A stretch of 56,286 nucleotides of DNA from Acidobacteriota bacterium. GTDB taxonomy: Bacteria; Acidobacteriota; Vicinamibacteria; Vicinamibacterales; UBA8438. Positions 7,993-43,400 of this stretch are shown in pieces. Within the stretch, counting starts at the first letter, position 1; each line of letters begins with the position of its first letter. The notes under the pieces were generated by a model that was not told the origin of the DNA, did not search any database, and saw only the letters and a program-made list of their open reading frames with translations. The stretch is from assembly GCA_009861545.1 (NCBI GenBank), contig VXME01000100.1, positions 1-56,286 on the forward strand, read 5' to 3'. A program made the position numbers and the translations under genes.

Positions 7993-8322
7993 ATGGTGTC
8001 GATACCGCGGGGACGGTGGTTGGTCCCGGCCATCACGGTCATGTTGGTTGCGTTAGCGATCGGACCGGCCAGTGGGTTCTTTCATGGCCACGGGACCGGC
8101 GCGCCCGACGACCATTGTGCGGTCTGCCACGCGCACCATGCCTCCGCCATCGAGACACAGCACGCGCACGTCGGACTCGAGGCTGTCGCCCACACGCTCA
8201 CACCGCTGCAGGCCAAGGCCGAGCGTGACGTCTGCCTCGGCGTCCACTTCTGCCGCGGTCCCCCCTGCCCTCCTCGCTCTAGTCCCGATCGCTCGGACAC
8301 CACCAATCGCCCCGCGGGGTAG
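7993..8322 (+). CDS. Small exported His/Cys-rich protein, DUF2946-like
   Basis: A 109-residue protein: an N-terminal hydrophobic segment (about residues 10-29), then 'FFHGHGTGAPDDHCAVCHAHHAS', whose central part 'DDHCAVCHAHH' is very rich in potential metal ligands, then a less ordered tail with two more cysteines (VCLGVHFC). It shares design with the protein at 2032-2310 (helix, HxH, D-x-C-x-x-C). The CAVCH string also fits a haem c attachment motif C-x-x-C-H, but no cytochrome fold follows. It is divergent from the DUF3526 permease pair with 66 bases between starts, and 47-55 bases ahead of the amidohydrolase. Possible role: metal handling at the envelope. No specific function is known to me. 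Confidence 0.5.
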   Translation: MVSIPRGRWLVPAITVMLVALAIGPASGFFHGHGTGAPDDHCAVCHAHHASAIETQHAHVGLEAVAHTLTPLQAKAERDVCLGVHFCRGPPCPPRSSPDRSDTTNRPAG

Positions 8323-8377
8323 GCGCCGCCGGTCCCGTGGGCCATCGCGTAGGCGGCTGGAGTAGGGAGTGACGACC

Positions 8378-9511
8378 ATGGATGACATCACACGACGGAC
8401 GTTCTTCGGTCGAGCGGCGGCGGGAGCCCTCGGGGCCGCGGCGGTAACGGCAGGTCTGCCCGGCTCGATGCGCGCTCGTGCCCGGACCCAGCGCCCGGCG
8501 GCGCCGAGCGGTCCTCGCGCCGACTGGCTGGCATTGACTGACGAGGCCGTGCTGGAGCCGGAGCTGCCCATCATCGACCCGCACCACCACCTGTGGGATC
8601 GCCCGGGCAACCGCTACCTGTTGGATGAGCTGCTCGAGGACACGAACACACACAACGTCCGTCAGACCGTCTTCGTCGAGTGCACCTCGATGTATCGGGC
8701 GGACGGTCCGGAGGAGCTCCGTATCGTGGGCGAGACGGAGTTCGTGGAGGGCGTCGCCGCCATGAGCGCGAGCGGCCAGTACGGTGAGACCCGGGTGGCG
8801 ACCGGCATCGTGGGATCGGCCAACCTGCTCCTCGGCGACCGCGTGGCGCCGGTGCTCGAGGCGCAGATCGCGGCCAGCCCGCAGCGCTTCCGGGGCGTCC
8901 GCCATCGGGCCGCCTGGGCGGAGCCGCCCGTCGTGGCGCGGCGTCCGACCGGACCCGAGCATCTGCTTCTCGATCCCGAGTTCCGTCGTGGCTACGCGCA
9001 CCTGCGCCCCTACGGACTCACGTTCGAGGGCTGGCTTTATCACACCCACATTGCAGACCTGGCCGACCTCGCGGATGCGTTCCCCGACACGACCATCATC
9101 TTCAACCACCTCGGCGGGCCCATCGGGATCGGGCCCTACGCCGGACGCCATGACGAGGTCTTCGAGGTCTGGAGGCCGGCCGTGACCGAGCTGGCCCGAC
9201 GTCCGAACGTGGTGGCGAAGGTGGGTGGGATCCAGATGGTCGTTAACGGCTACGGCTGGCACGAGCGCGACCGGCCGCCGACCTCGGACGAGTTGCTCGA
9301 GGCCAACGGCGACTGGTATCGCCACATCATCGAGGCGTTCGGGCCGCGGCGCTGCATGTTCGAGAGCAACTTCCCGGTCGACAAGCTGTCGTGCTCGTAC
9401 ACCGTGCTCTGGAACCAGTTCAAGAAGCTGACGCAGGGGTTCTCGGCCGACGAGCGGGCGGCGATGTTCCACGACACCGCGTTGCGGGTCTACCGGCTCC
9501 CGCGGGTCTGA
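8378..9511 (+). CDS. Tat-exported amidohydrolase family 2 enzyme
   Basis: A 377-residue metal-dependent hydrolase of the amidohydrolase_2 (PF04909-type) family. The N-terminus carries a twin-arginine signal, 'RRTFFGRAAAGALGAAAV'. The mature domain opens with 'IIDPHHHLWD', the H-x-H metal motif, and later has 'FNHLGGPIG', 'VVAKVGGIQM' and 'MFESNFPVDK', the usual conserved run ending in the metal/catalytic aspartate. Members hydrolyse or decarboxylate small carboxylic acids and lactones such as 2-pyrone-4,6-dicarboxylate; the substrate here is open. AGTAGGGAG ends 8 bases before the ATG at 8378; a GTG nine bases earlier (8369) is less well spaced. Convergent with the molybdopterin enzyme gene. 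Confidence 0.85.
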   Translation: MDDITRRTFFGRAAAGALGAAAVTAGLPGSMRARARTQRPAAPSGPRADWLALTDEAVLEPELPIIDPHHHLWDRPGNRYLLDELLEDTNTHNVRQTVFVECTSMYRADGPEELRIVGETEFVEGVAAMSASGQYGETRVATGIVGSANLLLGDRVAPVLEAQIAASPQRFRGVRHRAAWAEPPVVARRPTGPEHLLLDPEFRRGYAHLRPYGLTFEGWLYHTHIADLADLADAFPDTTIIFNHLGGPIGIGPYAGRHDEVFEVWRPAVTELARRPNVVAKVGGIQMVVNGYGWHERDRPPTSDELLEANGDWYRHIIEAFGPRRCMFESNFPVDKLSCSYTVLWNQFKKLTQGFSADERAAMFHDTALRVYRLPRV

Positions 9512-9547
9512 CGAGGCAAGCGGGCGACGCGTGCCGAAAGGCGGGTG

Positions 9548-11674
9548 TCAGGGCCGGCGCCGCACGGTCACCGGCAGGCCGTTGAAGGCGGCGTTGCCGC
9601 TCAGCGTATCGAGGTGAAGCTCGCTCGTCACGTCGTTGGCGCTCGCGCCGGCGTGCGCGCGTGCGACGCCGAGGCGGCTGCCTTCGCGGTCGTGGCCCCA
9701 CCCGTGCGGCAGGCTGACGACGCCGGGCCGCATCGAGTCGGTGACCTCGACCGGGACGGTCACGCTGCCGGCCGCCGATCCGATCTCCGCCAGATCGCCG
9801 GTGAGGAGCCGGCGCGCTTCCGCGTCCTCGGGATGGACGAGGAGCGTGCAGCGCGCCGGTCCCTTCACCAGGCGCCGGCTGTTGTGCATCCAGGAGTTGT
9901 TGCTCCTGGACTGGCGTCTCCCGATCAGCACCAGTCCGCTCGCCCCGTCGCCGTCGGCCTCGGGGAGGAGGCGGTTGCGCGCCTCGCGCACGAACGCCTC
10001 GGGAGCGATGTCGATCCGTCCGTCCGGCGTGGCGACGCGGCCGGCGAGACGCCCCGGCTGGAGCGGGCCGAGGTCGACACCGTGCGGCGTGGCGCGCAGC
10101 CGGGCTAGCGTCAGGTCGTGCGGCCCCAGTCGCAGCAGCAGGTCGAGGACCCGCTCCGGCCGCAGCGCCCGGGCCGCCCGGGTGACCAGCCGGCGCAGCG
10201 GCCGCGGCGCGAGCGCGCGGCCACCCAGCTCCGCCAGGATCTCCCAGTCGTGACGCTGCGCCGGAGACCCGGGAACCGCGGGCTCGGCGTACTTCGCCAC
10301 GTTGCGCACGGCGAAGGCGTTGAGCGCCAGGTCGTAATGCGGGCGGGCGAGCGGCGGCGCCGGCGGCAGCAGGACGTGGGCGTGGCGCGTGGTCTCGTTG
10401 AGGTAGAGATCGACCGCGACCATGTGCTCCAGCGTCCCCAGCGCCCGCTCGAGGCGCCGTCCGTTCGGGGCTGACAGGACCGGGTTGCCGGCCACGGTCA
10501 GCAACGCGCGGACCGACCGCGGGCCGGCGTGCTCGATCTCGTCCGCCAGCCCCGCGACCGGCAGTTCGCCGCCGAACTCCGGCAGATTCCGCGCGCCGCT
10601 CCGCCAGCGGTCGAAGGTCCCGCGCCAGCCCAGTCGGGCGAGAATGCCCAGCACGTCGACGGCAGGCGTCGGCAGCAGCATGCCGCCGACCTCGTCCAGC
10701 CGGCCGGTCGCCAGGTTCAGCGCCTGTTGCAGCCACGCCGCGAGCGTCCCGTGGCGCTGCGTGCAGAGCCCCACGCGGCCGTAGCACGCGGCCCGTTCGG
10801 CGTGCGCGAAGTCGACCGCGAGGCGGCGTATCGCCGCGGGGGCGATCCCGGTGCGCGGGGCCACGCGCTCGGGAGTCAGATCGCCGACGAGAGCGGCCAG
10901 CGCATCGATACCGTTGACGCGGCCCGCCAGCCGGCCGAGGCGCACCCGTCCCTGCGCGAAGATCACCTGCAGCAGGGCGGCCAGCAAGAGGGCGTCGGCG
11001 CCCGGCCGGATGGCGAGATGCGTGTCCGCCGCGTCGGCGGTCTCGGTGCGGCGCGGATCGACGACCACCACGCGCCCGCCGCGCGCCCGGATGCCGGCGA
11101 GGCGGCGGCGCATGTCGGGCGCGCTCATGAGGCTGCCGTTGGAGACGAGGGGATTGGCGCCGATGACGAGAAAGAAGTCGGTCCGGTCCACGTCCGGCAC
11201 CGGGATCAGCCCGAAGTGTCCGAACATGCGCAACGCGGCCAGCATCTGCGGAAGCTGATCGGCGGAGCTCGCCGAGTAGACGTTGCGCGTCCCGAACGCC
11301 CGCCGAAAGGCGAGCCCGTGGGTCAGCAGGCCGAGGTTGTGCGCGACGGGATTGCCGTAGTAGAGCCCGACCGCATCGCGGCCGTGCCGGCGGCGGACGC
11401 CGGCCAGCCCGCCGGCGGCGCGATCGAGGGCCTCGTCCCAGGAAGCCTCGCGCCAGTCCGAGCCCGTGCGGATGAGGGGCGTCCGAATACGCTCGGGATC
11501 GTGGTGCAGATCGGCGAGCGCCGCCGCCTTCGGGCAGACATAGCCGCGGCTGAAGGGATCGTCGGGATCGCCGCGGACCGACCGGATGCGCCGGCCGTCG
11601 ACCTCGACCAGCAGGCCGCACATCGCCTCGCAGAGCGGACAGGTCGTGATGCGCGGCGCCGGTTGCCGGCTCAT
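9548..11674 (-). CDS. Molybdopterin (bis-MGD) oxidoreductase with [4Fe-4S] domain
   Basis: A 708-residue enzyme of the DMSO reductase superfamily. An N-terminal 4Fe-4S motif is visible as 'CPLCEAMCGL' (Cys12, 15, 19) with a fourth cysteine in 'GYVCPKA' (about Cys48). It is followed by molybdopterin-binding segments ('LYYGNPVAHN', 'FLVIGANPLVSNGS', 'VVVVDPRRTETAD') and a C-terminal molydop_binding domain ('NNSWMHNSRRL', 'VSLPHGWGHDREG'). No Tat signal is present, so it is probably cytoplasmic, like assimilatory or formate-dehydrogenase-like members. Where Cys or Sec would ligate Mo, the region reads 'YSASSADQLP', so a Ser or Asp ligand is possible. It lies 103 bases downstream of the dienelactone hydrolase on the same strand. 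Substrate unknown. Confidence 0.85.
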   Translation of the reverse strand: MSRQPAPRITTCPLCEAMCGLLVEVDGRRIRSVRGDPDDPFSRGYVCPKAAALADLHHDPERIRTPLIRTGSDWREASWDEALDRAAGGLAGVRRRHGRDAVGLYYGNPVAHNLGLLTHGLAFRRAFGTRNVYSASSADQLPQMLAALRMFGHFGLIPVPDVDRTDFFLVIGANPLVSNGSLMSAPDMRRRLAGIRARGGRVVVVDPRRTETADAADTHLAIRPGADALLLAALLQVIFAQGRVRLGRLAGRVNGIDALAALVGDLTPERVAPRTGIAPAAIRRLAVDFAHAERAACYGRVGLCTQRHGTLAAWLQQALNLATGRLDEVGGMLLPTPAVDVLGILARLGWRGTFDRWRSGARNLPEFGGELPVAGLADEIEHAGPRSVRALLTVAGNPVLSAPNGRRLERALGTLEHMVAVDLYLNETTRHAHVLLPPAPPLARPHYDLALNAFAVRNVAKYAEPAVPGSPAQRHDWEILAELGGRALAPRPLRRLVTRAARALRPERVLDLLLRLGPHDLTLARLRATPHGVDLGPLQPGRLAGRVATPDGRIDIAPEAFVREARNRLLPEADGDGASGLVLIGRRQSRSNNSWMHNSRRLVKGPARCTLLVHPEDAEARRLLTGDLAEIGSAAGSVTVPVEVTDSMRPGVVSLPHGWGHDREGSRLGVARAHAGASANDVTSELHLDTLSGNAAFNGLPVTVRRRP

Positions 11675-11777
11675 GCCCGAGACGCGGAAGGTGTGGAACG
11701 CATCGCCGCGACGGCCGGGCGCCGCCTCGCCGCGGGACGCAGGAAGCGCGGCGATGCGTTCCGGGAACGCGCGTTCG

Positions 11778-12641
11778 TCAGAGCGCGGTCTCGAACAGGG
11801 CGAGCAGACGGCTCCACGCCCGCTCCGCCTGCGCCTCGTGGTAGACCTGCGTGTCCGGCGGGCACCAGCCGTGCAGCGCGCCCTCGTACACCTCGATCTC
11901 CGCCGGCAGCCCGGCCTCCGCGAACACGTCGCGCAGGACGTTCTTCGCCTCGGGCTCGGCCTCGTCGTCGTCCTCGGAAATAGCGAACAGGTAGTGCGCC
12001 GTCATCTGCGGCACGAGCAGGTGCGGGCTGTCCGGCTGGTCGGTGACGAGGCCGCCGCCGTGGAACGAGGCGCCCGCGCCGATGCGGTCGGGCAGGGCCG
12101 CGGCCGTCCGCATGGTGATCGGGCCGCCCATGCAGTAGCCCATGGTCCCCATCTTCCGGTTGCTGTCCACCGACGACTGGCTGTCGAGGAAGCCCACGAA
12201 CGCCTGCGCGTCCCGCACGTGGGTCTCCGCGTTCAGCGTGCCCATCAGCGGCCTGACGATGGGGGCCACCTCGGCGAAGTTCGTCGAGTCCACGATGGGC
12301 GCGCGCTGCGACCGGTAGTACTGGTTCACCACCAGCACGGAATAGCCGGACTCCGCCAGCCGCTTCGCCATCTGCCGCTTCGCCGGTCGCAGGCCGAAGG
12401 CGTCGGGCCAGATGAGAACGCCGGGATGGGCGCCGCTCGAGGGGTGCACGAAGTAGCTGTCGCACACGCCGTCGGGGGTCGTGACGTCGATTTCGGATTC
12501 GGTGACGTCCTGGGCGTTGGCCGCCCGGGGCAACAACATCGCCAGTCCGGCGCCGGCCGATACGGCCCCGAACTCGCGCCGGGTCAGCCCCTTCGCGCGC
12601 AGGTACCTGACGTGGTCGGCAACGGTTCTCTCATCACACAT
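11778..12641 (-). CDS. Tat-exported dienelactone hydrolase family protein
   Basis: A 287-residue alpha/beta hydrolase. 'TRREFGAVSAGAGLAMLLP' then 'ANAQD' is a twin-arginine signal with a cleavage site. The mature part matches dienelactone hydrolases: 'GVLIWPDAFGLRP' after strand 3, the nucleophile elbow 'MGYCMGG' with a catalytic cysteine, and 'YEGALHGWCPP' carrying the catalytic histidine. The family cleaves dienelactones in aromatic ring-fission pathways, but many exported homologues have unknown ester substrates. GAGGAG precedes the ATG at good distance. It is the first gene of a same-strand pair with the molybdopterin oxidoreductase, and diverges from the STAS gene, with 88 bases between. 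Confidence 0.88.
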   Translation of the reverse strand: MCDERTVADHVRYLRAKGLTRREFGAVSAGAGLAMLLPRAANAQDVTESEIDVTTPDGVCDSYFVHPSSGAHPGVLIWPDAFGLRPAKRQMAKRLAESGYSVLVVNQYYRSQRAPIVDSTNFAEVAPIVRPLMGTLNAETHVRDAQAFVGFLDSQSSVDSNRKMGTMGYCMGGPITMRTAAALPDRIGAGASFHGGGLVTDQPDSPHLLVPQMTAHYLFAISEDDDEAEPEAKNVLRDVFAEAGLPAEIEVYEGALHGWCPPDTQVYHEAQAERAWSRLLALFETAL

Positions 12642-12729
12642 GGCGGTCTCCTCGCTGGGATCTCTCCCGGGACAATGTCAATCCCTCCGCCTCGATTCTA
12701 GCAGCCCGGTCTGCGGTAGTCTTCTCTGC

Positions 12730-13080
12730 GTGACCGACACGATCCGCATCGACGTGGACCACGAGAGAGAGACGCTCATCCTCACGCCGCGCGGGCGGCT
12801 GGACACCACCTCGACCGCCGATTTCGAGCGGCAGGTGATGGTCCATCTCGGCAAGGGCGCCACGCGGCTGGCCCTGGACTTCGACCACCTCGATTTCGTC
12901 GGCAGCTCCGCCCTCCGCATCGTCCTGATCGCCGCCAAGGCGCTGCGGGCACGCCAGGGGCGCTTCGCCCTGTGCAACCTCAAGCCGCACGTCTCCGAGG
13001 TCTTTCGCATCTCCGGCATCCACCGCGTCATCGACATCTACGGCACCCGGAACGACGCTCTCGCGGCCATCGACGCTTGA
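12730..13080 (+). CDS. STAS-domain anti-anti-sigma factor
   Basis: A 116-residue single-domain protein. 'LTPRGRLDTTSTADFERQV' corresponds to the beginning of the STAS fold, and 'LDFDHLDFVGSSALRIVL' contains the conserved serine that is phosphorylated in SpoIIAA/RsbV-type proteins (D-F-V-G-S-S). I use the GTG at 12730, since the open frame upstream is antisense to the dienelactone hydrolase and adds no domain. In partner switching, the STAS protein binds an anti-sigma kinase when dephosphorylated by a PP2C phosphatase. The SpoIIE-type phosphatase 105 bases downstream is the obvious partner; no HATPase kinase gene is in this window. Confidence 0.9.
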   Translation: MTDTIRIDVDHERETLILTPRGRLDTTSTADFERQVMVHLGKGATRLALDFDHLDFVGSSALRIVLIAAKALRARQGRFALCNLKPHVSEVFRISGIHRVIDIYGTRNDALAAIDA

Positions 13081-30105: not shown

Positions 30106-30648
30106 CTAGCCGCGCGACACCACCCGGAACGACCACCAGCCGTCCGGCCGCGGCGTGCCGATCGGCACCGGCGGGTTGGCCGGCTCCTCCAGCGAGTGCA
30201 GCTTGTCGAGCCTGGCGACCCAGGCCGTGTCGAGCTCGTCCGCGTCCATCGCCCGCGTCAGTTGAACCGGGTAGACGGTGCCGTCGAGGCGCAGCCACGC
30301 CGTGCCGTCCTCGACCGCGAACCCGGACCAGCGCTTGCCGTCGCAGTTCGAGCAGCTCAGGTACAGGTCGCCGCTCTCGGTGGCGAAGCAGTTCAGGTTG
30401 ATGGCGTGCGGCAGCAAGCCGGCCCGGATCTGGATCTGGCACAGCGTCACCTGGTTCGCGAACGTCCAGTCGCTCACCGGCTCCTCGTGCTCGGCGCCGA
30501 ACAGGACGGCTCCGGGCATGCGATCGCACGGGCAGGTGGCCGACCACCCGTAGAAGCCGATCGCAAGCAGGACCACGAGGGCCACCGGTGCGCTGATGGC
30601 CGGTCGCTCCAACACCTTCTCGAGCAGGGCGCGGATGTCTGTGCTCAT
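30106..30648 (-). CDS. Small membrane-anchored protein, family member B, coupled to fbiC
   Basis: A 180-residue protein with one N-terminal membrane helix (about residues 17-35) and an exported domain with seven cysteines. Motifs 'SDWTFANQVTLCQIQI', 'ESGDLYLSCSNCDGKRWSGF', 'TAWLRLDGTVYPVQLTRAM' and final 'GWWSFRVV' follow the order seen in the proteins at 1076-1612 and 16261-16752. The ATG overlaps the fbiC stop (ATGA), with GGAGG inside the fbiC end, so translation is coupled. A C-x-C pair follows the helix ('ATCPCDRMPG'). Co-expression with the F420 gene makes a deazaflavin-linked role attractive; this is inference. Confidence 0.7.
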   Translation of the reverse strand: MSTDIRALLEKVLERPAISAPVALVVLLAIGFYGWSATCPCDRMPGAVLFGAEHEEPVSDWTFANQVTLCQIQIRAGLLPHAINLNCFATESGDLYLSCSNCDGKRWSGFAVEDGTAWLRLDGTVYPVQLTRAMDADELDTAWVARLDKLHSLEEPANPPVPIGTPRPDGWWSFRVVSRG

Positions 30649-33143
30649 CGGTTTGCCTCCCTCTGTCTCATTGAACGTTCCGGTGAACCGTTGTCCCCGA
30701 CGTCGGCACCGAGCCCGGGCCGGACCAGCGCCGGCCGCGCCCCGTCCCGCGCCCAGGCGGGACTCGGGGCCTGGACGACCGGTTGCAGGTCGGCGGCCTG
30801 AAACGACCGGGCCACCTGCGCGGCCACGGGCTCCCCGTAAGTGGTGGAGCGCTGCCTCGGCGTCCGGCCGGCCCCGCAGATCAGGGCCTCCATCCGCTCC
30901 GGCGACAGCTCCTGGCCGAACCCCGCGCCGGCGGCCCGCGTGATGCTCTCGTTCATCAGGGTGCCGCCCAGGTCGTTCACCCCGGCGTTCAGGCACGCGC
31001 GCACGCCGCGGGGCCCCATCTTCACCCACGACGCCTGGATGTTCGGCACCAACGGGTGCAGCGCCAGCCGCGCGACCGCGTGCATCAGCAGCGACTCGCG
31101 GAACGTCGGACCGCGGCGCGCCTTCCCCTTGAGGTAGATGGGCGCCTCCATGTGCACGAAGGGCAGGGGCACGAACTCGGTGAACCCCCCGCTGCGCGCC
31201 TGCAGCCCCCGGATGCTCGCCAAGTGGTGCCCCCAGTGCCGGGGCCGGTCGATGTGGCCGTACATGATGGTCGCCGTCGTCCGGAACCCGACCCGGTGCG
31301 CCGTCTCCATCACCTCGAGCCACTGCCCCGCCGTCAGCTTGTCGGGGCACAGGTCGCGCCGGACCTCGTCGTCGAGCACCTCGGCCGCGGTGCCCGGCAG
31401 CGTTCCCAGGCCGGCCGCCTTCAGTTGCCGCAGGAACGCCTCCAGCGACACGCCGAGGGTGGCCGCGCCCTGCCAGACCTCCAGCGGCGAGAAGGCATGC
31501 ACGTGCATGTCGGGCACCGCCGCCTTGACGGTGCGGCAGATGTCCAGGTAGGTGGCCCCCGTGTACTCGGGATGGATGCCGCCCTGCATGCACACCTCGG
31601 TGGCGCCGCGCTTCCAGGCCTCCACGCTGCGCCGGGCGATCTCGTCGAGGTCGAGGTCGTAGGGCGCCCCCCGCAGGTTCTCGCTCAGCTTGCCCTTGGA
31701 AAAGGCGCAGAACTGGCACTTGAAGTAGCAGACGTTGGTGTAGTTGATGTTGCGGTTGACGACGTAGGTGACCTCGTCGCCGTTGACCTCGCGGCGCAGT
31801 GCGTCGGCCGCCCGCACCACGGCGACCAGATCGTCGCCACGGGCGGAAAAGAGCGTCGCGATCTCCACCTCGTCCAGCCCGTCGCCGCGCGCGGCCCTCT
31901 CGCACAACGCCCGCACCGTGGCGCTCGGCGCCGGCGGGGCTGCATCATCGAGGCGTTCCAGAAGCGGCGCCGGCAGCACGGCGTCGGGGTCGCCGGGCGA
32001 CCAGGCGCTCTCGCGGGCGAAGCCTTCCGCGTCGGATGCCTGCCGGACAGCCGGCCGCAACGGCTCCGCCACCCAGCGGTCCAGATCCCGCGCGTAGGAC
32101 GGATAGACCGTCAGCCGCTCGGTCAGCACCTTGCCCTCGCGCGCGGTCTCGCGCGCCAGCGCCTCCAGATGCGGCCACGGCGCCTCCGGATTGACGTGGT
32201 CCGGCGTCACCGGAGACACCCCGCCCCAGTCGTTGATACCCGCCCGGATCAGGGCGCCGAAGCGGTCCGGGGTGAGGTTGGGCGGCGCCTGGATCGCCAT
32301 GTCGGGACCGAAGATCAACCGCGCGCAGGCGATCGTCCACTGCAGGTCGGCGAGCGGCGGCTCGGGAGCCTGGGCCATCCGGGTGTCCGTCTTGGCCCGG
32401 AAGTTCTGGACGATGATCTCCTGGACGTGACCGTGCTTGTCGTGCAGGTCGCGCAACGCAAGGAGCGATTCGATGCGCTCCTCCCTGGTCTCGCCGATGC
32501 CGATCAGGATGCCGGACGTGTAGGGAATCGCCAGCTCCCCCGCCAACCGCATCGTCTCCAGACGCGCGTCCGGGTCCTTGTCGGGTGAGCCGTGGTGCGC
32601 CAGGCCCGGCTCCAGCAGGCGCCGGGAGACGCTCTCCAGCATCATTCCCTGCGACGGGCACACCGCGCGGAGCGCGAGCAGCTCGTCCCGCGTGACGACA
32701 CCGGGGTTGGCGTGCGGCAGCAGGCCCGTCGCCTCGAACACCGCGCGGGCGGCGGCCACCAGGTACGCGATCGTCGTCGGATACCCCAGCGCGTCCAGCT
32801 CGGCGCGCGCCTGCGGATATCTCAGCTCGGGCTTGTCGCCGAGGGTGAAGAGCGCCTCGTTGCAGCCCGCCTCCGCGCCGCGGCGGGCTACCTCGACGAC
32901 CTCGTCGAGCGTCATGTACGCCCGCTCGCCCGGTCGCGGCGGCTGGGCGAACGTGCAGTAGTGGCACACGTCGCGGCACAGCTTCGTGAGGGGGATGAAC
33001 ACCTTGCGCGAATAGCTGACAGGCCGCCCGAAGCCCGCGTCGCGCAACTCGGCGGCGCGCCGCATCAGGGCTGGCAGGTCGGTTTCCCGCGCGAGGTCCC
33101 ACGCCGTCTCCCGAGACGGCCTGACGTAGGTGCTGGTGTCCAT
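30645..33143 (-). CDS. fbiC: 7,8-didemethyl-8-hydroxy-5-deazariboflavin synthase, CofG-CofH fusion (FbiC)
   Basis: An 832-residue double radical-SAM enzyme that makes F0, the deazaflavin precursor of coenzyme F420, from a ribityl-aminouracil and tyrosine. The CofG half has the C-x3-C-x2-C cluster at Cys56, Cys60, Cys63 ('LCRDVCHYCTF') and 'MMLESVSRRLLEPG'; the CofH half has Cys472, Cys476, Cys479 ('VCYFKCQFCAF') and 'GTAAEVLDDEVRRDLCPDKL'. Fusion of both halves is the actinobacterial FbiC form. I start at the ATG at 33143; the frame further upstream has no homologous pattern. A TATAAG-like -10 (33183-33188) lies about 40 bases ahead. Other F420 genes (fbiA, fbiB, fbiD) are not in the window. 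Confidence 0.95.
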   Translation of the reverse strand: MDTSTYVRPSRETAWDLARETDLPALMRRAAELRDAGFGRPVSYSRKVFIPLTKLCRDVCHYCTFAQPPRPGERAYMTLDEVVEVARRGAEAGCNEALFTLGDKPELRYPQARAELDALGYPTTIAYLVAAARAVFEATGLLPHANPGVVTRDELLALRAVCPSQGMMLESVSRRLLEPGLAHHGSPDKDPDARLETMRLAGELAIPYTSGILIGIGETREERIESLLALRDLHDKHGHVQEIIVQNFRAKTDTRMAQAPEPPLADLQWTIACARLIFGPDMAIQAPPNLTPDRFGALIRAGINDWGGVSPVTPDHVNPEAPWPHLEALARETAREGKVLTERLTVYPSYARDLDRWVAEPLRPAVRQASDAEGFARESAWSPGDPDAVLPAPLLERLDDAAPPAPSATVRALCERAARGDGLDEVEIATLFSARGDDLVAVVRAADALRREVNGDEVTYVVNRNINYTNVCYFKCQFCAFSKGKLSENLRGAPYDLDLDEIARRSVEAWKRGATEVCMQGGIHPEYTGATYLDICRTVKAAVPDMHVHAFSPLEVWQGAATLGVSLEAFLRQLKAAGLGTLPGTAAEVLDDEVRRDLCPDKLTAGQWLEVMETAHRVGFRTTATIMYGHIDRPRHWGHHLASIRGLQARSGGFTEFVPLPFVHMEAPIYLKGKARRGPTFRESLLMHAVARLALHPLVPNIQASWVKMGPRGVRACLNAGVNDLGGTLMNESITRAAGAGFGQELSPERMEALICGAGRTPRQRSTTYGEPVAAQVARSFQAADLQPVVQAPSPAWARDGARPALVRPGLGADVGDNGSPERSMRQREANR

Positions 33144-33280
33144 CGAAGTCCGGCTGCAGTGTCCGACGGGTATCCGCAGACGCTTATACCACGTCGGGAG
33201 CGGTGCTGGCACAAGGAGCACGGCGCGCCGAGGAAATGCAAATGTAACTCGCAGGTCTTCATCTGCATGGTTCTTGGCCT

Positions 33281-36478: not shown

Positions 36479-39400
36479 ATGAAGCATCCGGACGGCCCCG
36501 CCGACACGGCCGGCAACCGCTACGAGCACTGGTGGACGCTGGCGGAGTGCGTGCGCCTGCTGCACGGCGGCGCCGAGACCCTGCGGATCGAGGCCCTCGC
36601 GGCCGGTCGCGCGGAGCTGATCGTAACCACGGACGCGGAGCGGGAGGTGCACTACGCGCGACTCCGGCACCCGGCCGGCGCGTTGAACCTCACGGCTCTC
36701 GACAACGCGGCCGGGCCGCTGCAGACCGCCGGCGACCGTCTGGCCGGCAACGACGACCGGTTCGTCCTGGTGTCCGGCAGCGCGGCCCCGGAGCTCTCCG
36801 GACCCTGCGCGGCGGCGGCGACCTCGGACTCGTCGGAGGCGTTCGAACGCGAGTGGCTGACCACCCGCGCCCGCCGGGAGTGGTTCGCGAGGCTACTCCG
36901 CTGCTGGGTCTGCGAAGCGCCGGCGGCACTCGACCGGCTGCGGCGGATCGAGGTCCGGACGGTCGCCGGGCGGGAGGTGGAGGAGCAGGTGCGCCGGGGG
37001 CTGCAGACGCTCTTCGTTGCGGACCCCGGCACGATGGTCGCACGGCTGCGAGCGATCGTGGAAGGCGCCGGGCCGCGCACGATGACCAGCCGGGAGCTGG
37101 TCGAGCGGCTCGCCCGGCGCGGATTCCGGCCACGCCGCTTGCACGACGCCGGCCGAGCGGGCGCCGCAGTGGCGCGCGCGACGGACCGCTACCTGGACGG
37201 CGCGCGCCGGGGGCTGATTCGAGGAACGGTGCTGCCGCGGGAGGCGGCGGCGAAGCTGAAGGCGCGTCTGGAAGGAACGGCGAGCGAGAGCGTCCTGACC
37301 GGGAGGGCGGGAGCCGGCAAGACCGCCTGCGTCGTCGACGTGGTGGATGCCGCGCGTGCGCGGGGTCTGCCCGTTCTGGCGTTCCGGCTCGACCACATGA
37401 TCACGGCGGCGACCGCCACGGACCTGGGACGCCACCTCGATCTCGAAGAATCGCCGGTCCTCGTGCTCGCCGAGGCCGCCCGGGCGGCCGGACGGGCCGG
37501 CGTCCTGATCGTCGACCAGGTGGACGTCGGCGCAGAGCTGTCCGGCGACGGCTCCGGCGCCGGCGGCCTCATCGAGCGGGTGATGCAGGAAGCGCGCGGA
37601 ATCCGCCCGCGGGCGCCAATCCACACCGTCGTCGTCTGCCGGGCCTTCGACTGGCGGAACGATCCCGCCCTGCGGCGGCTCCTGCCCGCTGCCGAAGCGC
37701 GGATCGAGGTAGCCGAGCTCGACCGCCGCGAGGTCGAGGAGACGCTGGCGGGAGCCGGACTCGATCACGAAACGTACGGCGATCGCGAGCTGGAGATCCT
37801 GCGGCTTCCCCAGCACCTGCATCTCCTGCTCGAGAGCGGGGCCGACGCGTCGAGCCCGCCGGCGTTCGCCACCGCGACGGCCCTGTTCGACAGGTACTGG
37901 ACTGCAAAGCGCCGCGCCGTCGCCACCCGGGCCGCGCCGCAGCCGGACCAGTGGATGGCCGTCGTCGGAACCCTCTGCGAAGAGATGATCTCCTCGCGGA
38001 AACGCACCATCCCGATGGAGCGGCTGGACGAGGTCTCCCCCGCGTATCTGGAGCAACTGGCGGCGGCGGGCGTGGTGGCCGTCCACGGGCGTCGCTGCGG
38101 ATTCGGTCACGAGAGCCTCCTCGACTACTGCGCCGCGCGGGTGTTCTTCCACCGGCGGGAATCGCTGGTGTCGTCTCTGGAGGGCTCGTCCCAGCATCTG
38201 TCCCACCGCACCCGGATCCGCCAGACGCTGGCGTACCTGCGGGACGCGGACCCGTCGCAGTACGTGCGGGAGCTGCGCGGACTGCTCGCCGGCGAGCGCA
38301 TCCGGCCGCACGTCAAGGATCTCGCGTTCGCGACCCTCGCCGACGTCCCGGATCCGACCGGGCGAGAGTGGACGGTCTGGGAGAACTGGATCGCCCCGGC
38401 GTTGCAGGCCATCGAGGACGACGCCGCGAACCCGGACCCGTTGTCGGCGCTCGCGTGGCGGCGCTTCTTCGACTCGGCGTCGTGGTTCGCGTTCACCGAC
38501 AGGTACGGCCCGACCAGCGGCTGGCTGGCCTCGGGCAACGACCGTCTGGCCGGCGCCGCCGTGGGCTACCTGCGGCGGCACCATCGCCACGCTCCCGATC
38601 GGGTCGCCGCCCTGCTGGAGCCCTATGCCGATCTCGGCGGCGTTTGGACCCCGCGCTTGCGCGCCTTCATGGAGTGGGCCGACCACCACGCGAGCCGCCG
38701 TCTTTTCGAGCTGTTCCTGCGTCTCGTCGACAACGGCACGCTGGACGAGGCCCGTGGCCGGACCGCGGCGAACGCCACGTTCTGGAGCGCGCTCCGGGGC
38801 CTGGGAGAGCACCGCCCCGAGTGGGTGCCGGAAATCGTGGCGTACCGCTTCCGCCGGCGCCTGGCCGTGCTGCAGTCCACGGGCCAGGACCTGGGAAGCC
38901 ACGAGCTGCCGGGCTACGACGACCACGCGGCGGCGCTGTTCGCACGGTCCGCCGAGCACGCGCCCGGCGCCTTCGTGGAGCACGTTCTGCATCCCGTGCT
39001 CGATTTCTCGGACGCCACGCTGACCGGCGGCAATCCGCCGCGGCACGACGCCGTGTGGCCGATCGTCACCAGGACGGAGTATCCGGAGGCCGACCATGCC
39101 TGCCTCGACGCGCTGGCGGCGGCGCTGGCCGCCGTCGCGCGCGCCGGCGAGAAGGCCCTGACGGACATCGTCGGCGACCTGCGCCGGCGCGAAACCCACG
39201 TGGCGAACCGTCTGTTGCTGGCGCTCTACGCGGGATCGGGCGCGCGGCACGCGGACGAGGCGGTGACATTGCTGTGCGACGAATCGTGGCGTTTTCGGTG
39301 CGGGTTCTCCGACAACCCGCAGTGGTACGCGACGGAGACGATTCGGGCAGTGATTCCGCACTGCGCCAGCGAATCACGCGAGCGTCTCGAGCGCGCGCTG

Positions 39401-41032
39401 CTCGACTACGTGGCCCCCGACGAGCGCGGCATCCGCGGCTACCGGCAGGCCGGGCGGGCTCGTCTGGCCCTGCTCTCGGCGCTGCCCGCCGAGTTGCGCA
39501 GCGCCGATGCGAACGCGGCCGTGCAGGCGCTCGAGCGCAAGTTCGGGACGGACGGCGACAGCCGGCAGCCGATTGCCGTCGATTCGGTCGCGCCCCCGAT
39601 CGACCGGCGTGCCGCCGAGGCCATGAGCGACGAGCAGTGGCTCGGGGCCATCGCGCGGCATCGGCCCAGGGCCCCGGCGCCGGCATCGCGCGACGAGCTC
39701 AAGGGGGGCGAGTGGGAGCTGGCGGGGCACCTCGAAGCGCGCGCCGCCGAGGACCCCGATCGCTTCGCGCGGCTCGCGCTGAAGCTGCCTCCCAACGCGC
39801 ATCCCGTGTATCTGGACCGGACGCTGGCGGCTCTGAAGACCGCCGCCGCCCCGCCCGCCGTCAAGCTTCAGGTCTGTCAGAAGGCCTTCGCGGAGTCGCG
39901 CGGCGCCTGCGGGCGTTCGGTCGCCGACGTGCTCGGGAGCATCCGCGAGCCACTGCCGAACGACGCCGTGCGCATGCTCCACTGGCTCGCCACCGAGCAC
40001 GCGGACCCCGCCACGACGACCTGGCAGGAGGAGGAGGTCGGGATCGACACCGCGCGCGGGAGCGCGGCCGAGGCCATCCGCGGGCTGATCGTCGAGGACG
40101 CCGCCTACATCTCCCGATTCCGGGTCACGCTCGACCGCCTGATCCGGGACCCGAGCGCCTCGGTGCGGGCGTGCGCCGCGGCGGCGATCCGGGCCGTCTC
40201 CGACCGCGATCCGGCCCTCGGCATGACGCTCTTCAATCGCCTCGACCTGTCCGAGGATCGTCTGCTCGCCAGCTCGCAGGTCTACGGCTTTCTCCGCGAC
40301 AGCCTGCGCGACCGCTTCACGGACGTTCGGCCTGTCGTCGAGCGCATGCTGCAATCATCGGCGGCGGAGGTCTGCGAGGCCGGCGCGCGCCTGGCCAGCC
40401 TGGGCGCGCTGGAGCACGCCGGCGCGGTCGATGCTTCCACCGATGCCCCGCAGCCCGCGGTAGCCGCGATGAGCGCCGAGCCGGAGCACCGCAGCGCCGC
40501 GGGTCTGGCCGCCGACGCCGCCCGCGGCGGCCCTGCGCACCGCCTCGGCGTGGCGCACGTAGCCGCCGCCAATCTGGCGATTCCGGAGTACCGGCGCTGG
40601 TCGACCACGACGCTCACCGCACTGTTCGACGACGACGACGACGCGGTCCGACGCCGGGCGGCGACCTGCTTCCGGCACGTGCAGGACGAGCCGCTCGACA
40701 CCTACGGCGATCTCATCGAGGCGTTCAGCGCCAGCAAGGCGTTCGGCGACGACCCCGCTTCGATTCTCGACACGCTGGAAGCGTCGCGCGAACCACTGCC
40801 GGGCGCCGCCTGCACGGTCTGCGAGAAGTTTCTCGACCGCTTCGCCGACGAGGCCCGGGACGCACGCAGCGACCGCCACGCCGACGCGCTCACCGTCGCT
40901 GCGCTCGTCTTCCGCACCTGCCGCCAGCACGAGGACGACGAGTGGGCGAAGCGCGCGCTGGATCTCGTCGACCGCCTCTGCCTGCTCCAGATCGGCGACG
41001 CGCGAGGCGCCCTCGAGCAGTTCGAGCGCTAG
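36479..41032 (+). CDS. STAND-like P-loop NTPase with degenerate Cap4-like N-terminus and HEAT-like C-terminus
   Basis: A 1517-residue protein. Residues 10-80 resemble the DUF4297/Cap4 nuclease start ('AGNRYEHWWTLAECVRLL', then Glu38, then a hydrophobic strand), but the expected Asp is Glu46 and the Q-x-K is 'ARL' at 60-62, so the nuclease centre looks lost. The NTPase has Walker A GRAGAGKT (275-282), Walker B 'GVLIVDQVDV' (Asp346), and the 'VVVCRAFDWRND' and 'LRLPQHLHLLLE' motifs seen in large defence NTPases. From about 560 on it is helical repeat (HEAT/ARM-like, e.g. 'PSASVRACAAAAIRAV'), fit for sensing a ligand. No signal or membrane segment. The OLD-like gene follows 47 bases downstream. 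Function in phage defence is inferred from architecture. Confidence 0.75.
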   Translation: MKHPDGPADTAGNRYEHWWTLAECVRLLHGGAETLRIEALAAGRAELIVTTDAEREVHYARLRHPAGALNLTALDNAAGPLQTAGDRLAGNDDRFVLVSGSAAPELSGPCAAAATSDSSEAFEREWLTTRARREWFARLLRCWVCEAPAALDRLRRIEVRTVAGREVEEQVRRGLQTLFVADPGTMVARLRAIVEGAGPRTMTSRELVERLARRGFRPRRLHDAGRAGAAVARATDRYLDGARRGLIRGTVLPREAAAKLKARLEGTASESVLTGRAGAGKTACVVDVVDAARARGLPVLAFRLDHMITAATATDLGRHLDLEESPVLVLAEAARAAGRAGVLIVDQVDVGAELSGDGSGAGGLIERVMQEARGIRPRAPIHTVVVCRAFDWRNDPALRRLLPAAEARIEVAELDRREVEETLAGAGLDHETYGDRELEILRLPQHLHLLLESGADASSPPAFATATALFDRYWTAKRRAVATRAAPQPDQWMAVVGTLCEEMISSRKRTIPMERLDEVSPAYLEQLAAAGVVAVHGRRCGFGHESLLDYCAARVFFHRRESLVSSLEGSSQHLSHRTRIRQTLAYLRDADPSQYVRELRGLLAGERIRPHVKDLAFATLADVPDPTGREWTVWENWIAPALQAIEDDAANPDPLSALAWRRFFDSASWFAFTDRYGPTSGWLASGNDRLAGAAVGYLRRHHRHAPDRVAALLEPYADLGGVWTPRLRAFMEWADHHASRRLFELFLRLVDNGTLDEARGRTAANATFWSALRGLGEHRPEWVPEIVAYRFRRRLAVLQSTGQDLGSHELPGYDDHAAALFARSAEHAPGAFVEHVLHPVLDFSDATLTGGNPPRHDAVWPIVTRTEYPEADHACLDALAAALAAVARAGEKALTDIVGDLRRRETHVANRLLLALYAGSGARHADEAVTLLCDESWRFRCGFSDNPQWYATETIRAVIPHCASESRERLERALLDYVAPDERGIRGYRQAGRARLALLSALPAELRSADANAAVQALERKFGTDGDSRQPIAVDSVAPPIDRRAAEAMSDEQWLGAIARHRPRAPAPASRDELKGGEWELAGHLEARAAEDPDRFARLALKLPPNAHPVYLDRTLAALKTAAAPPAVKLQVCQKAFAESRGACGRSVADVLGSIREPLPNDAVRMLHWLATEHADPATTTWQEEEVGIDTARGSAAEAIRGLIVEDAAYISRFRVTLDRLIRDPSASVRACAAAAIRAVSDRDPALGMTLFNRLDLSEDRLLASSQVYGFLRDSLRDRFTDVRPVVERMLQSSAAEVCEAGARLASLGALEHAGAVDASTDAPQPAVAAMSAEPEHRSAAGLAADAARGGPAHRLGVAHVAAANLAIPEYRRWSTTTLTALFDDDDDAVRRRAATCFRHVQDEPLDTYGDLIEAFSASKAFGDDPASILDTLEASREPLPGAACTVCEKFLDRFADEARDARSDRHADALTVAALVFRTCRQHEDDEWAKRALDLVDRLCLLQIGDARGALEQFER

Positions 41033-41079
41033 CCGCCCGGCAGACGGTTGCGTACGATGGCAACGAACAGACCCGTGCC

Positions 41080-42813
41080 ATGCTGACGAAGCTCACCGTC
41101 CGGAACTTCAAGCGCTTCGGCGAGGTCGAGATCGAGCTCGGCGATCCGGTGGTCTTCATCGGCCCGAACAACTCGGGAAAGACCTCCGCGATGCAGGCGC
41201 TGGCTCTGTGGGACATAGGCCTCAAGCGCTGGAACGAGAAGCGATCCGGCAAGAGCACGCCCGAAAAGCGCCCCGGCGTGACGGTCAACCGCCGCGACCT
41301 CGTGGCGATCCCGATACCGGACGCGAATCTGTTGTGGCGCGGGATGCACGTGCGGGACGTGCGGCGGGAAGACGGCCGGCAGACGACGAGGAACATCCGC
41401 ATCGACCTCGTCGTCGAGGGTGTGACCGCCGACGAACGCTGGCTCTGCGGACTCGAATTCGACTACGCGAACGAGGAGTCCTTCTACTGTCGGCCGCTCC
41501 GGGAAACCGACGGCAGGACGCCCGAGCGCATGCCGATACCCGACGCGGCGGGAGGCGTCCGCATCGCCTTCCTGCCTCCGATGTCGGGGCTGGCGGCCAC
41601 GGAGACGAGGCTCGCTCACGGCGCCGTGAACGTCCGTATCGGCGAGGGACGCACCGCCGAGGTGTTGCGCAACCTCTGCTTCCGCATTCACGAAGAGCAA
41701 CCGGCACGGTGGAACGGACTCGTCGAGCACGTTGGGAGCCTCTTCGGGGCGGAGCTCGATCCGCCGCGCTACGTCCCCGAGCGCGGCGAGATAGTGATGG
41801 GCTACCGCGAGCAGGGAGCGCGGCTCGACCTGTCGTCATCCGGGCGGGGCCTGCAGCAGACGCTGCTCCTGCTGGCGTACATGTACGCGAATCCGGGCGC
41901 CGTCCTGCTTCTGGACGAGCCGGACGCGCACCTGGAGATCCTGCGCCAGCGCCAGATCTACCGGCTGCTCACGGACGTCGCGGCCGAGAGCGGCAGTCAG
42001 ATCATCGCCGCCAGTCATTCCGAGGTGCTGCTGAACGAGGCCGCCGGGCGGGACGTGGTCGTGGCGTTCGTCGGCCCGCCGCATCGCATCGACGATCGCG
42101 GCAGCCAGGTCCTGAAGGCGCTTCGCGACATCGGGTTCGACCAGTACTACCAGGCGGAACAGACCGGCTGGGTGTTGTACCTCGAAGGCTCCACCGACCT
42201 GTCGATCCTGCGCGCCTTCGCCCGGCGACTGGGACACGAACGCGCCCTCCGGGTGCTGGAGCGGCCGTTCGTGCACTACGTCGGGAACCTGCCCACGGCC
42301 GTGCAGAGCCACTACCACGGCCTGCGCGAGGCGCTCCCCGCGCTCCGCGGCGTTGCCATCTTCGATCGTCTCGAAGGGGTCCCTCGGGACATCGCGCCGG
42401 TCGACTGCCTGATGTGGAAACGCCGCGAAATCGAGAACTACGTCTGCTCGCGCGCCACGCTGGAATCGTACGCGAGCACGTCAACTCCGGAAGAGGCCGA
42501 GGGCCCGCTCTTCACGGCGGCGGAAGCGGAGCGGCGCCTGGGCGTGATGCGCACGGCCATCGACGAGATCCGGTCGGCGCTGGACACGCTGGGCAAGGGC
42601 TCACCCTGGCACCCGGACACCAAGACCAGCGACGAGTTCCTGACCCCCCTCTTCGAAACCTACTTCTCCAGGCTCGGCTTGCCGAATCTGATGGCGAAGA
42701 AGAACTTCCACGTGTTGGCCGAGTACGTGCCGGACGACGAGATCGACTCCGAGATCGGCGACAAGCTGGACGCCATCGCGCGCGTCGCCGAGAGCGCGAC
42801 GCCCGCCGGATAG
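41080..42813 (+). CDS. OLD-family ATPase with Toprim-like C-terminal domain
   Basis: A 577-residue protein. The ABC-type ATPase half starts 'LTKLTVRNFKRFGEVEIEL', with Walker A GPNNSGKTS (28-36), signature 'LSSSGRGLQQ' (251-260), Walker B 'AVLLLDEPDAHLE' (Asp279, Glu280) and switch His 'ASHSE' (311-315). The C-terminal half is Toprim-like: 'LYLEGSTDLSIL' (Glu369, Asp373), 'VAIFDRLEG' (Asp429) and 'KRREIENYV' (447-455), the last a recurring motif of OLD-type nucleases. These are ATP-regulated nucleases used in several defence systems (Gabija GajA, PARIS, retron-linked). The start ATG has no strong ribosome binding site, suggesting coupling to the upstream NTPase gene. Confidence 0.88.
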   Translation: MLTKLTVRNFKRFGEVEIELGDPVVFIGPNNSGKTSAMQALALWDIGLKRWNEKRSGKSTPEKRPGVTVNRRDLVAIPIPDANLLWRGMHVRDVRREDGRQTTRNIRIDLVVEGVTADERWLCGLEFDYANEESFYCRPLRETDGRTPERMPIPDAAGGVRIAFLPPMSGLAATETRLAHGAVNVRIGEGRTAEVLRNLCFRIHEEQPARWNGLVEHVGSLFGAELDPPRYVPERGEIVMGYREQGARLDLSSSGRGLQQTLLLLAYMYANPGAVLLLDEPDAHLEILRQRQIYRLLTDVAAESGSQIIAASHSEVLLNEAAGRDVVVAFVGPPHRIDDRGSQVLKALRDIGFDQYYQAEQTGWVLYLEGSTDLSILRAFARRLGHERALRVLERPFVHYVGNLPTAVQSHYHGLREALPALRGVAIFDRLEGVPRDIAPVDCLMWKRREIENYVCSRATLESYASTSTPEEAEGPLFTAAEAERRLGVMRTAIDEIRSALDTLGKGSPWHPDTKTSDEFLTPLFETYFSRLGLPNLMAKKNFHVLAEYVPDDEIDSEIGDKLDAIARVAESATPAG

Positions 42814-42882: not shown

Positions 42883-42917
42883 ATGTCGCGGCCGGCCCGA
42901 GAGACCGGCCGCGACAT
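42883..42917. terminator. Strong hairpin between convergent genes
   Basis: A perfect 13-base stem, ATGTCGCGGCCGG (42883-42895) with CCGGCCGCGACAT (42905-42917), loop of 9 bases. It lies between the ends of the OLD-like gene and the cupin gene, 70 and 31 bases away. There is no T-tract, so it may be a factor-assisted or bidirectional stop, or an mRNA 3' stabiliser. Confidence 0.6.
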
Positions 42918-42947: not shown

Positions 42948-43400
42948 TCACTGCCCCGCGCCGCTGCCGTACACCTCGTCCGTCACCGGCTCGAGCCACT
43001 CGATGGTCAGGTGCTCGCCGGCCTCGTTCGGGAACGTGATCGAGACGTGCGTCAGCGCCTCGCCGGGGATCGCACCGTGCCAGTGGCGGACGCCGCGGGG
43101 CAGGTGCGCGGTCTCGTGCAGGCCGATGTCCCGGACCGGCTGGCCCTCGACCTGGTAGCGCAGGCCGCCCTCCTTGACGAACAGCAACTGCTCGCTGTGC
43201 GTGTGCCAATGCGTCCGGGCGCCGGCCTCGAAGCCGCGCGACGACACGCGGACGTCCCCCGCATCGAGCCGGAAGGAGGTCCCGGTGAAGGGATTCTCCT
43301 GGCCGGACGCCGTCGGCTGGCCGATCCAGACGACCGCGACCGTCGCGACGACTCCCACCAACAGCCCGACGCGCAACCGTTCCCGCAGCTTCCAGCTCAT
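42948..43400 (-). CDS. Exported cupin-domain protein
   Basis: A 150-residue protein: an N-terminal membrane/signal segment (about residues 10-28), then a single cupin fold with metal motif 'HWHTHSEQLLFVKEGG' (H-x-H-x3-E-type) and second motif 'HLPRGVRHWHGAIPGE'. Single-domain exported cupins act as small dioxygenases, isomerases or sugar-binding proteins; no specific activity can be deduced. GGAGAC lies 4 bases before the ATG at 43400, fixing the start. It diverges from the glycosyltransferase gene. Confidence 0.85.
   Translation of the reverse strand: MSWKLRERLRVGLLVGVVATVAVVWIGQPTASGQENPFTGTSFRLDAGDVRVSSRGFEAGARTHWHTHSEQLLFVKEGGLRYQVEGQPVRDIGLHETAHLPRGVRHWHGAIPGEALTHVSITFPNEAGEHLTIEWLEPVTDEVYGSGAGQ

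What the first reader, a model, noticed from the sequence alone, without database searches (positions are those of the whole stretch)
36479..42813. Two-gene candidate defence system: STAND-like NTPase plus OLD-Toprim nuclease
A 1517-residue P-loop NTPase with a long helical-repeat C-terminus (sensor-like) is followed 47 bases later, same strand, by an OLD-family ATPase with Toprim-like acidic residues (Glu369, Asp373, Asp429) and the 'REIENY' motif. Large NTPases with helical sensors (Avs-type) and OLD nucleases (Gabija, PARIS) are each known in phage defence, but I do not know this pairing as a described system. The pair is bordered by a strong hairpin and housekeeping-like receptor and cupin genes, as a cassette would be.
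Basis: partly seen in the sequence, partly recalled or inferred. Interest (0 to 1): 0.88.

Follow-up and report, generated by a model that had tools for sequence, protein, structure and literature searches.

The report
Two separate defence genes, not a pair
Two bacterial genes that both look like anti-virus weapons really sit side by side here, but their relatives elsewhere almost never do, so they are best read as two independent, individually familiar defence genes that happen to be neighbours in one genus rather than as a new two-part system.

Summary
In detail: a 1517-aa ORF (36479-41032) is followed 47 bp later by a 577-aa ORF (41080-42813) on the same strand. The domain reading also holds. 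Gene 1 is a STAND/NACHT NTPase: residues 224-640 model as an NLR-type NACHT, and Foldseek ranks Avs4 first. Gene 2 is an OLD-type ABC ATPase with a Toprim-like C-terminus; E369, D373 and D429 are invariant in 13 sequences.

The proposed two-gene system is not supported. Of 80 loci from many phyla holding a gene-1 relative, only the two from the window's genus also hold gene 2. Of 19 loci holding gene-2 relatives in other Acidobacteriota, none has gene 1. One congener keeps gene 1 at the same site without gene 2. Synonymous divergence between congeners differs more than threefold between the neighbours (0.75 against 0.22), so gene 1 was exchanged without gene 2.

Most likely these are two stand-alone defence-type genes brought together once. 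Unexpected: in this genus the nuclease motif of gene 1 (QxK) is lost (YAR, YPR, RVR), while the NTPase motifs and purifying selection persist.

The parts
36479..41032 (+). gene 1 (P0001): 1517-aa STAND/NACHT NTPase, Cap4-like N-terminus, helical C-terminus
   Evidence: ORF; relatives in 80 loci; AF2 model of residues 1-640, pLDDT 86.7
36500..37135 (+). gene 1 residues 8-219: Cap4/DUF4297-like PD-(D/E)xK fold domain
   Evidence: Z 15.7 over 193 residues to the E. coli Hachiman entry 8zue_A; Z 13.9 HerA-DUF 9c1m; Z 13.5 Cap4 6wam
36653..36661 (+). gene 1 residues 59-61 (Y-A-R) at the place of the family's catalytic-looking Q-x-K
   Evidence: alignment of 68 family members: QxK in most with this kind of N-terminus, QxR in L049, L050, L052, and YAR / RVR / YPR in the three aligned species of the window's genus
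37148..38398 (+). gene 1 residues 224-640: NACHT/STAND NTPase
   Evidence: Z 23.9 NLRP9 7wbt, 393 aligned, rmsd 4.6; Foldseek rank 1 Avs4 8dgf, E 9e-11
37301..37324 (+). Walker A, GRAGAGKT (residues 275-282)
   Evidence: conserved through the family
37502..37525 (+). Walker B, VLIVDQVD (residues 342-349)
   Evidence: conserved through the family
38189..41029 (+). gene 1 residues 571-1517: long tail, HEAT-like in part; presumed sensor
   Evidence: Pfam HEAT at residues 1219-1241, E 4e-4, below the curated cut-off; only its first 70 residues were modelled in structure
41055..41055 (.). point where collinearity with the congener G001 ends, 25 bp before gene 2
   Evidence: blastn of the window against L044; collinearity resumes at 42950 on another contig, L178
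41080..42813 (+). gene 2 (P0002): 577-aa OLD-type ABC ATPase with Toprim-like C-terminus
   Evidence: ORF; Pfam AAA_21 72 bits and AAA_15 67 bits; Foldseek rank 1 TsOLD 6p74, E 4e-12
41161..41184 (+). gene 2 Walker A, GPNNSGKT (residues 28-35)
   Evidence: G28, P29, N30, N31, G33, K34 invariant in 13 sequences
42184..42441 (+). gene 2 residues 369-454: Toprim-like acidic core E369, D373, D429 and W446-R448-E450-E452-Y454
   Evidence: invariant columns; second Asp of a DxD motif is absent in the window's subfamily
42883..42917 (.). 13-bp perfect inverted repeat between the convergent genes P0002 and cupin
   Evidence: sequence and RNA fold about -29 kcal/mol; no T-run

Best explanation
Two independent, stand-alone defence-type genes lie side by side. 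Gene 1 is most likely a bacterial NLR-like (STAND/NACHT, Avs-like) surveillance protein: the long C-terminal tail binds a phage component, the NACHT NTPase switches and oligomerises, and the N-terminal Cap4-type domain acts as effector (inferred by analogy with Avs1-4). In this genus the nuclease motif is eroded, so here the effector step is probably weakened or works without cleavage. Gene 2 is most likely a class-1-like OLD protein: an ATPase that gates a Toprim nuclease (inferred). They came together once, in the history of this one genus, at a rearrangement or insertion junction; they may be co-transcribed there, but relatives show no sign that they need each other. Shown: folds, motifs, distribution, unequal histories. 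Inferred: antiphage role, ligand and activity.
For: Gene 1 family in 80 loci of many phyla, gene 2-like in only two of them, both from the window's genus; with a profile search only weakly matching AAA genes appear in three further loci, one of them a true GajA. Nineteen loci around gene 2 relatives, no gene 1 relative. G001 keeps gene 1 downstream of the same receptor, collinear up to 41055, and carries the cupin side collinear from 42950 on another contig, with no gene 2 orthologue found in the genome. Window against G003: dS 0.75 for gene 1, 0.22 for gene 2, 0.36 for the receptor, non-overlapping 95% intervals; DNA identity drops to 66-78% over gene 1. Folds. Defence context of gene 1 relatives: between HmaA (519 bits) and HmaB (380 bits) in L045, beside a BPTD_3080 restriction endonuclease (1312 bits) in L057, in the same loci as GajA (792 bits), PD-Lambda-4_A (295 bits) and Avs3a (415 bits). 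Gene 2 relatives as lone genes near phage portal- or tail-like genes in two viral contigs.
Against: The 47-bp gap (1 bp in G002) and same strand suggest co-transcription in this genus, and the adjacency is kept in three separately assembled genomes. Gene 1 has lost its nuclease motif just where a nuclease-like gene stands next door, which would fit a functional link. No antiphage activity has been shown for either family here, and most of the C-terminal tail was not modelled.
Confidence: 0.8

Rival explanations
1. A true two-gene system limited to this genus: gene 1 senses phage and, having lost its own nuclease, hands the effector step to the OLD-Toprim protein encoded 47 bp downstream.
For: Tight same-strand spacing kept in G000, G002 and G003; loss of QxK in gene 1 of this genus; both proteins under purifying selection.
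Against: G001 has the same motif loss (YPR) and no gene 2 orthologue; QxR variants occur in loci without gene 2 (L049, L050, L052); gene 2 relatives lack gene 1 in 19 of 19 loci elsewhere in the phylum; gene 1 diverged or was exchanged between window and G003 without gene 2.
Confidence: 0.08
2. Gene 1 is a decaying defence gene on its way out in this genus; gene 2 is the only functional member of the pair.
For: QxK lost; two frameshifts in G002; fragments of gene 1 relatives in G019 and G001.
Against: Intact 1517-1520-aa frames in G000, G001 and G003, Walker A and B intact, dN/dS 0.31-0.33 over synonymous distances up to 0.8; the G002 frameshifts may be assembly errors.
Confidence: 0.1
3. Gene 2 is not a defence gene but a vertically kept housekeeping OLD-type ATPase.
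For: In genus g142 the orthologues sit at a similar place in many species, beside sulfatase-like and enoyl-CoA hydratase-like genes; an archaeal OLD-family ATPase with a cell-cycle role is known (PMC12796447, abstract).
Against: Patchy distribution (32 of 396 genomes of the phylum at E 1e-40), lone copies in viral contigs, and relatives lodged between a methyltransferase and a BPTD_3080 restriction enzyme.
Confidence: 0.12

Closest known systems
Avs (AVAST) STAND NTPases, in particular Avs4 (PDB 8dgf)
   Same: N-terminal nuclease-fold effector, central STAND NTPase, long C-terminus, similar total size; top Foldseek match of the model
   Different: no meaningful match to PADLOC Avs models (best Avs2, 12 bits); catalytic motif of the nuclease lost in this genus; ligand unknown
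PDB 9n00/9n01/9yix 'AAA family ATPase', 1523 aa
   Same: closest solved relative of the gene 1 family by sequence, profile E 1e-41, best stretch 68-637 of the profile
   Different: window protein itself only E 7e-8 by phmmer; name and function not found in the held papers
PADLOC candidate PDC-M54A
   Same: only PADLOC model with a clear match to gene 1 (48 bits; 80 bits for the G008 relative), over the NTPase region
   Different: match covers about 100-300 of 1600 positions; the make-up of the candidate system was not available to test
Class 1 OLD nuclease (TsOLD, PDB 6p74; P2 Old)
   Same: ABC ATPase plus Toprim-like C-terminus in one protein; without gene 1 in nearly all genomes
   Different: Toprim half not matched by sequence to any solved structure; second Asp of the usual DxD absent in this subfamily; here it stands beside another defence-type gene
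PARIS (AriA/AriB, AriAB fusion)
   Same: AriA-like ATPase head (PADLOC 76 bits; Z 17.6 to 8v46) and a partial match to the AriAB fusion model (48 bits)
   Different: single gene; the match is partial and other ATPase models score as well; no separate AriB gene next to it

Membership tests
STAND/NACHT (bacterial NLR-like) NTPase | NACHT-type NTPase fold with Walker A and B | tested here: met
   residues 224-640, Z 20-24 to NLRP9, NLRP3, NLRC4, NOD2; motifs
STAND/NACHT (bacterial NLR-like) NTPase | exchangeable N-terminal effector | tested here: met
   N-termini in the family differ by motif: Cap4-like, Mrr-like (QCK), TIR-like and nucleosidase-like; only the window's was modelled
STAND/NACHT (bacterial NLR-like) NTPase | C-terminal repeat sensor | tested here: inconclusive
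   about 950 residues after the NTPase, weak HEAT match; structure of this part not predicted
Avs (AVAST) | sequence match to an Avs profile | tested here: not met
   best PADLOC Avs model 12 bits, E 0.0075; structural likeness only
Avs (AVAST) | active N-terminal nuclease | tested here: inconclusive
   fold present but Q and K of the family motif replaced by Y and R; activity not measured
Avs (AVAST) | recognition of terminase or portal | not testable with these tools
   needs co-expression or binding assays
OLD family | N-terminal ABC ATPase | tested here: met
   Pfam AAA_21 and AAA_15 above cut-off; Z 17-18 to PtuA, SMC and AriA heads
OLD family | C-terminal Toprim domain with conserved acidic motif | tested here: inconclusive
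   E369, D373 and D429 invariant and long Foldseek alignment to 6p74, but model pLDDT only 70.6 and no Toprim sequence match in Pfam or PDB
OLD class 1 | single gene, not next to other defence genes (PMC10568477) | tested here: inconclusive
   no gene 1 in 19 of 19 loci elsewhere; in the window it adjoins gene 1; other defence neighbours were not scanned for systematically
Gabija (OLD class 2) | adjacent UvrD-like helicase GajB | tested here: not met
   next gene downstream is a cupin-like gene on the other strand, upstream neighbour is gene 1; GajA models only 45 bits or less
PARIS | AriA plus AriB (DUF4435 Toprim), separate or fused | tested here: inconclusive
   AriA 76 bits, AriAB 48 bits, partial; DUF4435 not hit by Pfam
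conserved two-gene system gene 1 + gene 2 | genes adjacent in unrelated genomes | tested here: not met
   2 of 80 loci, both in the window's genus; 0 of 19 in the reverse test

The most novel reading that the evidence does not exclude
In this genus an NLR-like sensor has lost its own nuclease and uses the neighbouring OLD-Toprim protein as its effector in trans: a STAND-OLD system of very recent origin, with G001 as a secondary loss.
Probability: 0.06. Interest if true: 0.75.

Novelty: new member of a known kind. Interest (0 to 1): 0.3.

Why it matters
The negative result removes a candidate system that rested on one adjacency. What remains of value is a broad, seemingly unnamed family of about 1500-aa NACHT NTPases (80 loci sampled from many phyla) with swapped N-terminal effectors, repeatedly found inside or beside restriction-modification and Hma loci, with a lineage that kept its NTPase but lost its nuclease motif: a natural case for testing whether such receptors can act without cleaving.

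Tried and rejected
Viral contigs for gene 1: 97 pattern matches, none a relative. Plasmids for gene 1: four distant relatives, as single genes; no OLD gene annotated beside it in the three loci opened. NCBIfam gave no family for gene 1. The Toprim half of gene 2 found nothing in PDB by sequence. Papers on PDC-M54 and on PDB 9n00: none held. I considered that the OLD-like hits in L060, L063 and L080 rescue the pairing: L080 is a GajA, L060 scores best to PD-T4-4_A, and L063 is a 20-bit match only. Considered that the adjacency is an assembly artefact: rejected, because three genomes show it. Clustering of neighbour genes over the 80 loci found no partner recurring in more than four loci.
Full report
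What is there. Two same-strand ORFs, 36479-41032 (1517 aa) and 41080-42813 (577 aa), are separated by 47 bp. The window is a whole contig of a 6.35-Mb, 174-contig genome; close relatives of the locus carry titles from Acidobacteriota, Vicinamibacterales. Upstream, on the other strand, lies a TonB-dependent receptor; downstream, on the other strand, a cupin-like gene, then a glycosyltransferase. The pair is visible in three genomes of the genus: G000 (window), G002 and G003, so it is not an assembly accident.

Gene 1. Sequence searches gave only a partial PADLOC match to candidate PDC-M54A (48 bits), weak HEAT and AAA matches in Pfam and nothing in NCBIfam. A profile of relatives finds one solved relative, PDB 9n00/9n01/9yix, an 'AAA family ATPase' of 1523 aa (E 1e-41), whose paper I could not find. 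AlphaFold2 on residues 1-640 with 39 sequences gave pLDDT 86.7. Residues 224-640 align with NACHT domains of NLRP9, NLRP3, NLRC4 and NOD2 at Z 20-24, and residues 8-219 with an E. coli Hachiman chain (8zue_A), HerA-DUF (9c1m) and Cap4 at Z 13-16; Foldseek ranks Avs4 first. So gene 1 has the effector - NTPase - long tail plan of Avs-type STAND proteins.

Family of gene 1. A genome scan returned 80 loci (145 candidates) from Acidobacteriota, Pseudomonadota, Rhodothermota, Spirochaetota, Chloroflexota, Actinomycetota, Planctomycetota and others; nearly all the complete proteins are about 1480-1750 aa long. In a 68-sequence alignment the Walker motifs, the CR-x-FD segment and the H-E/Q segment near residue 544 are largely kept; N-termini differ by motif: Cap4-like in most, Mrr-like (QCK), TIR-like and nucleosidase-like in distant branches (the last three are motif readings, not tested by structure). 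In the aligned rows of the window's genus the Q-x-K of the Cap4-like domain reads Y-A-R, Y-P-R and R-V-R; in near relatives L049, L050 and L052 it reads Q-x-R. dN/dS among the congeners is about 0.3, so the protein is still under constraint. Relatives lie in defence contexts: between HmaA and HmaB, beside BPTD_3080 restriction endonuclease and a methyltransferase, and in loci with GajA, with PD-Lambda-4_A and HmaB, and with Avs3a.

Gene 2. Pfam AAA_21/AAA_15; PADLOC's best matches are NsnB and AriA at 76-77 bits, and no family of NCBIfam reaches its cut-off among those listed. E369, D373 and D429 and R448-E450-E452-Y454 are invariant over 13 sequences down to 32% identity. The model (pLDDT 70.6, 12 sequences) matches OLD nuclease 6p74 first in Foldseek and PtuA, SMC and AriA heads over residues 1-353. 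Toprim identity rests on the acidic residues and the Foldseek alignment; sequence profiles do not confirm it, and the second Asp of a DxD is absent. Relatives occur in 32 of 396 Acidobacteriota genomes at E 1e-40, many at 48-82% identity, with varied neighbours, and in one genus at a conserved place. Two viral contigs carry 57% and 65% relatives near portal- or tail-like genes. More distant relatives (about 32-37%) sit between a DNA methyltransferase and a BPTD_3080 restriction enzyme, the same kind of locus that also houses gene 1 relatives in other genomes. Both families are thus guests of the same type of restriction locus, independently.

Test of the pair. Forward: with gene 2 and two of its relatives as tblastn queries, 2 of the 80 gene 1 loci carry gene 2, L056 and L062, which are G003 and G002 of the window's own genus; 64 of the 80 have at least 2 kb downstream of the gene. 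A profile search added three weak hits, of which L080 is a genuine GajA. Reverse: no gene 1 relative in 19 loci around gene 2 relatives, by 68 tblastn queries and a profile. Within the family of the window, gene 1 without gene 2 nearby is found in G001 and G008, and gene 2 without gene 1 nearby in G005, G006, G013, G019 and G021.

History of the junction. In G001 the DNA is collinear with the window from the receptor through gene 1 to position 41055 and then changes; the other side is collinear from 42950 on a different contig, preceded by unrelated genes. Gene 2, which lies exactly between, has no orthologue found in that genome (best 39%). Which arrangement is older I cannot say. Between window and G003, DNA identity is 82-94% in the receptor gene, 66-78% over gene 1, and 88-95% over gene 2; dS is 0.36, 0.75 and 0.22 with non-overlapping 95% intervals. 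Gene 1 therefore has a different history from its neighbour even where the two are adjacent; exchange with a diverged copy is my reading of this.

Conclusion. Mechanism: for gene 1, sensing by the tail, NACHT switching, effector by the N-terminal domain, the last step doubtful in this genus; for gene 2, ATP-gated Toprim cleavage. Both are inferences from fold and motif by analogy with Avs (PMC12931631) and OLD proteins (PMC10568477); no function was measured.

Noticed in passing
L057, L060, L063 (gene 1 relatives) and L028-L033 (gene 2 relatives): Both families occur, in different genomes, beside or inside the same kind of locus: DNA methyltransferase plus BPTD_3080 restriction endonuclease, which seems to collect accessory genes.
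   Followed up: partly
L045, 1936-15294 (same place as L049): Gene 1 relative lies between HmaA and HmaB, that is, embedded in an Hma-type locus.
   Followed up: partly
G019:C161:36546-36824; G001:C155:36816-37255; L021:13505-13643: Fragments of gene 1 (C-terminal 93 aa; N-terminal about 150 aa) and of gene 2 (N-terminal 47 aa) at other places, signs of gain and loss.
   Followed up: no
L022 (G002), 8300-12826: Gene 1 is broken by two frameshifts in this genome assembly; gene 2 follows 1 bp after its stop codon and is cut by the contig end.
   Followed up: no
L115:7502-8185, L126:7497-8186, L128:7661-8335: A separate gene of about 225 aa just upstream of distant gene 1 relatives resembles a split-off nuclease-like domain by motif; no PADLOC match for the one from L115.
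   Followed up: no
L182-L188, L193-L196 (mostly genus g142): Gene 2 orthologue at a similar place in many species, beside sulfatase-like and enoyl-CoA hydratase-like genes: apparent vertical keeping of a lone OLD-type gene.
   Followed up: partly
window 30645-33221 (-): Two-part radical SAM protein with a CofH/MqnC C-terminal region, resembling a fused F420 FO synthase.
   Followed up: no
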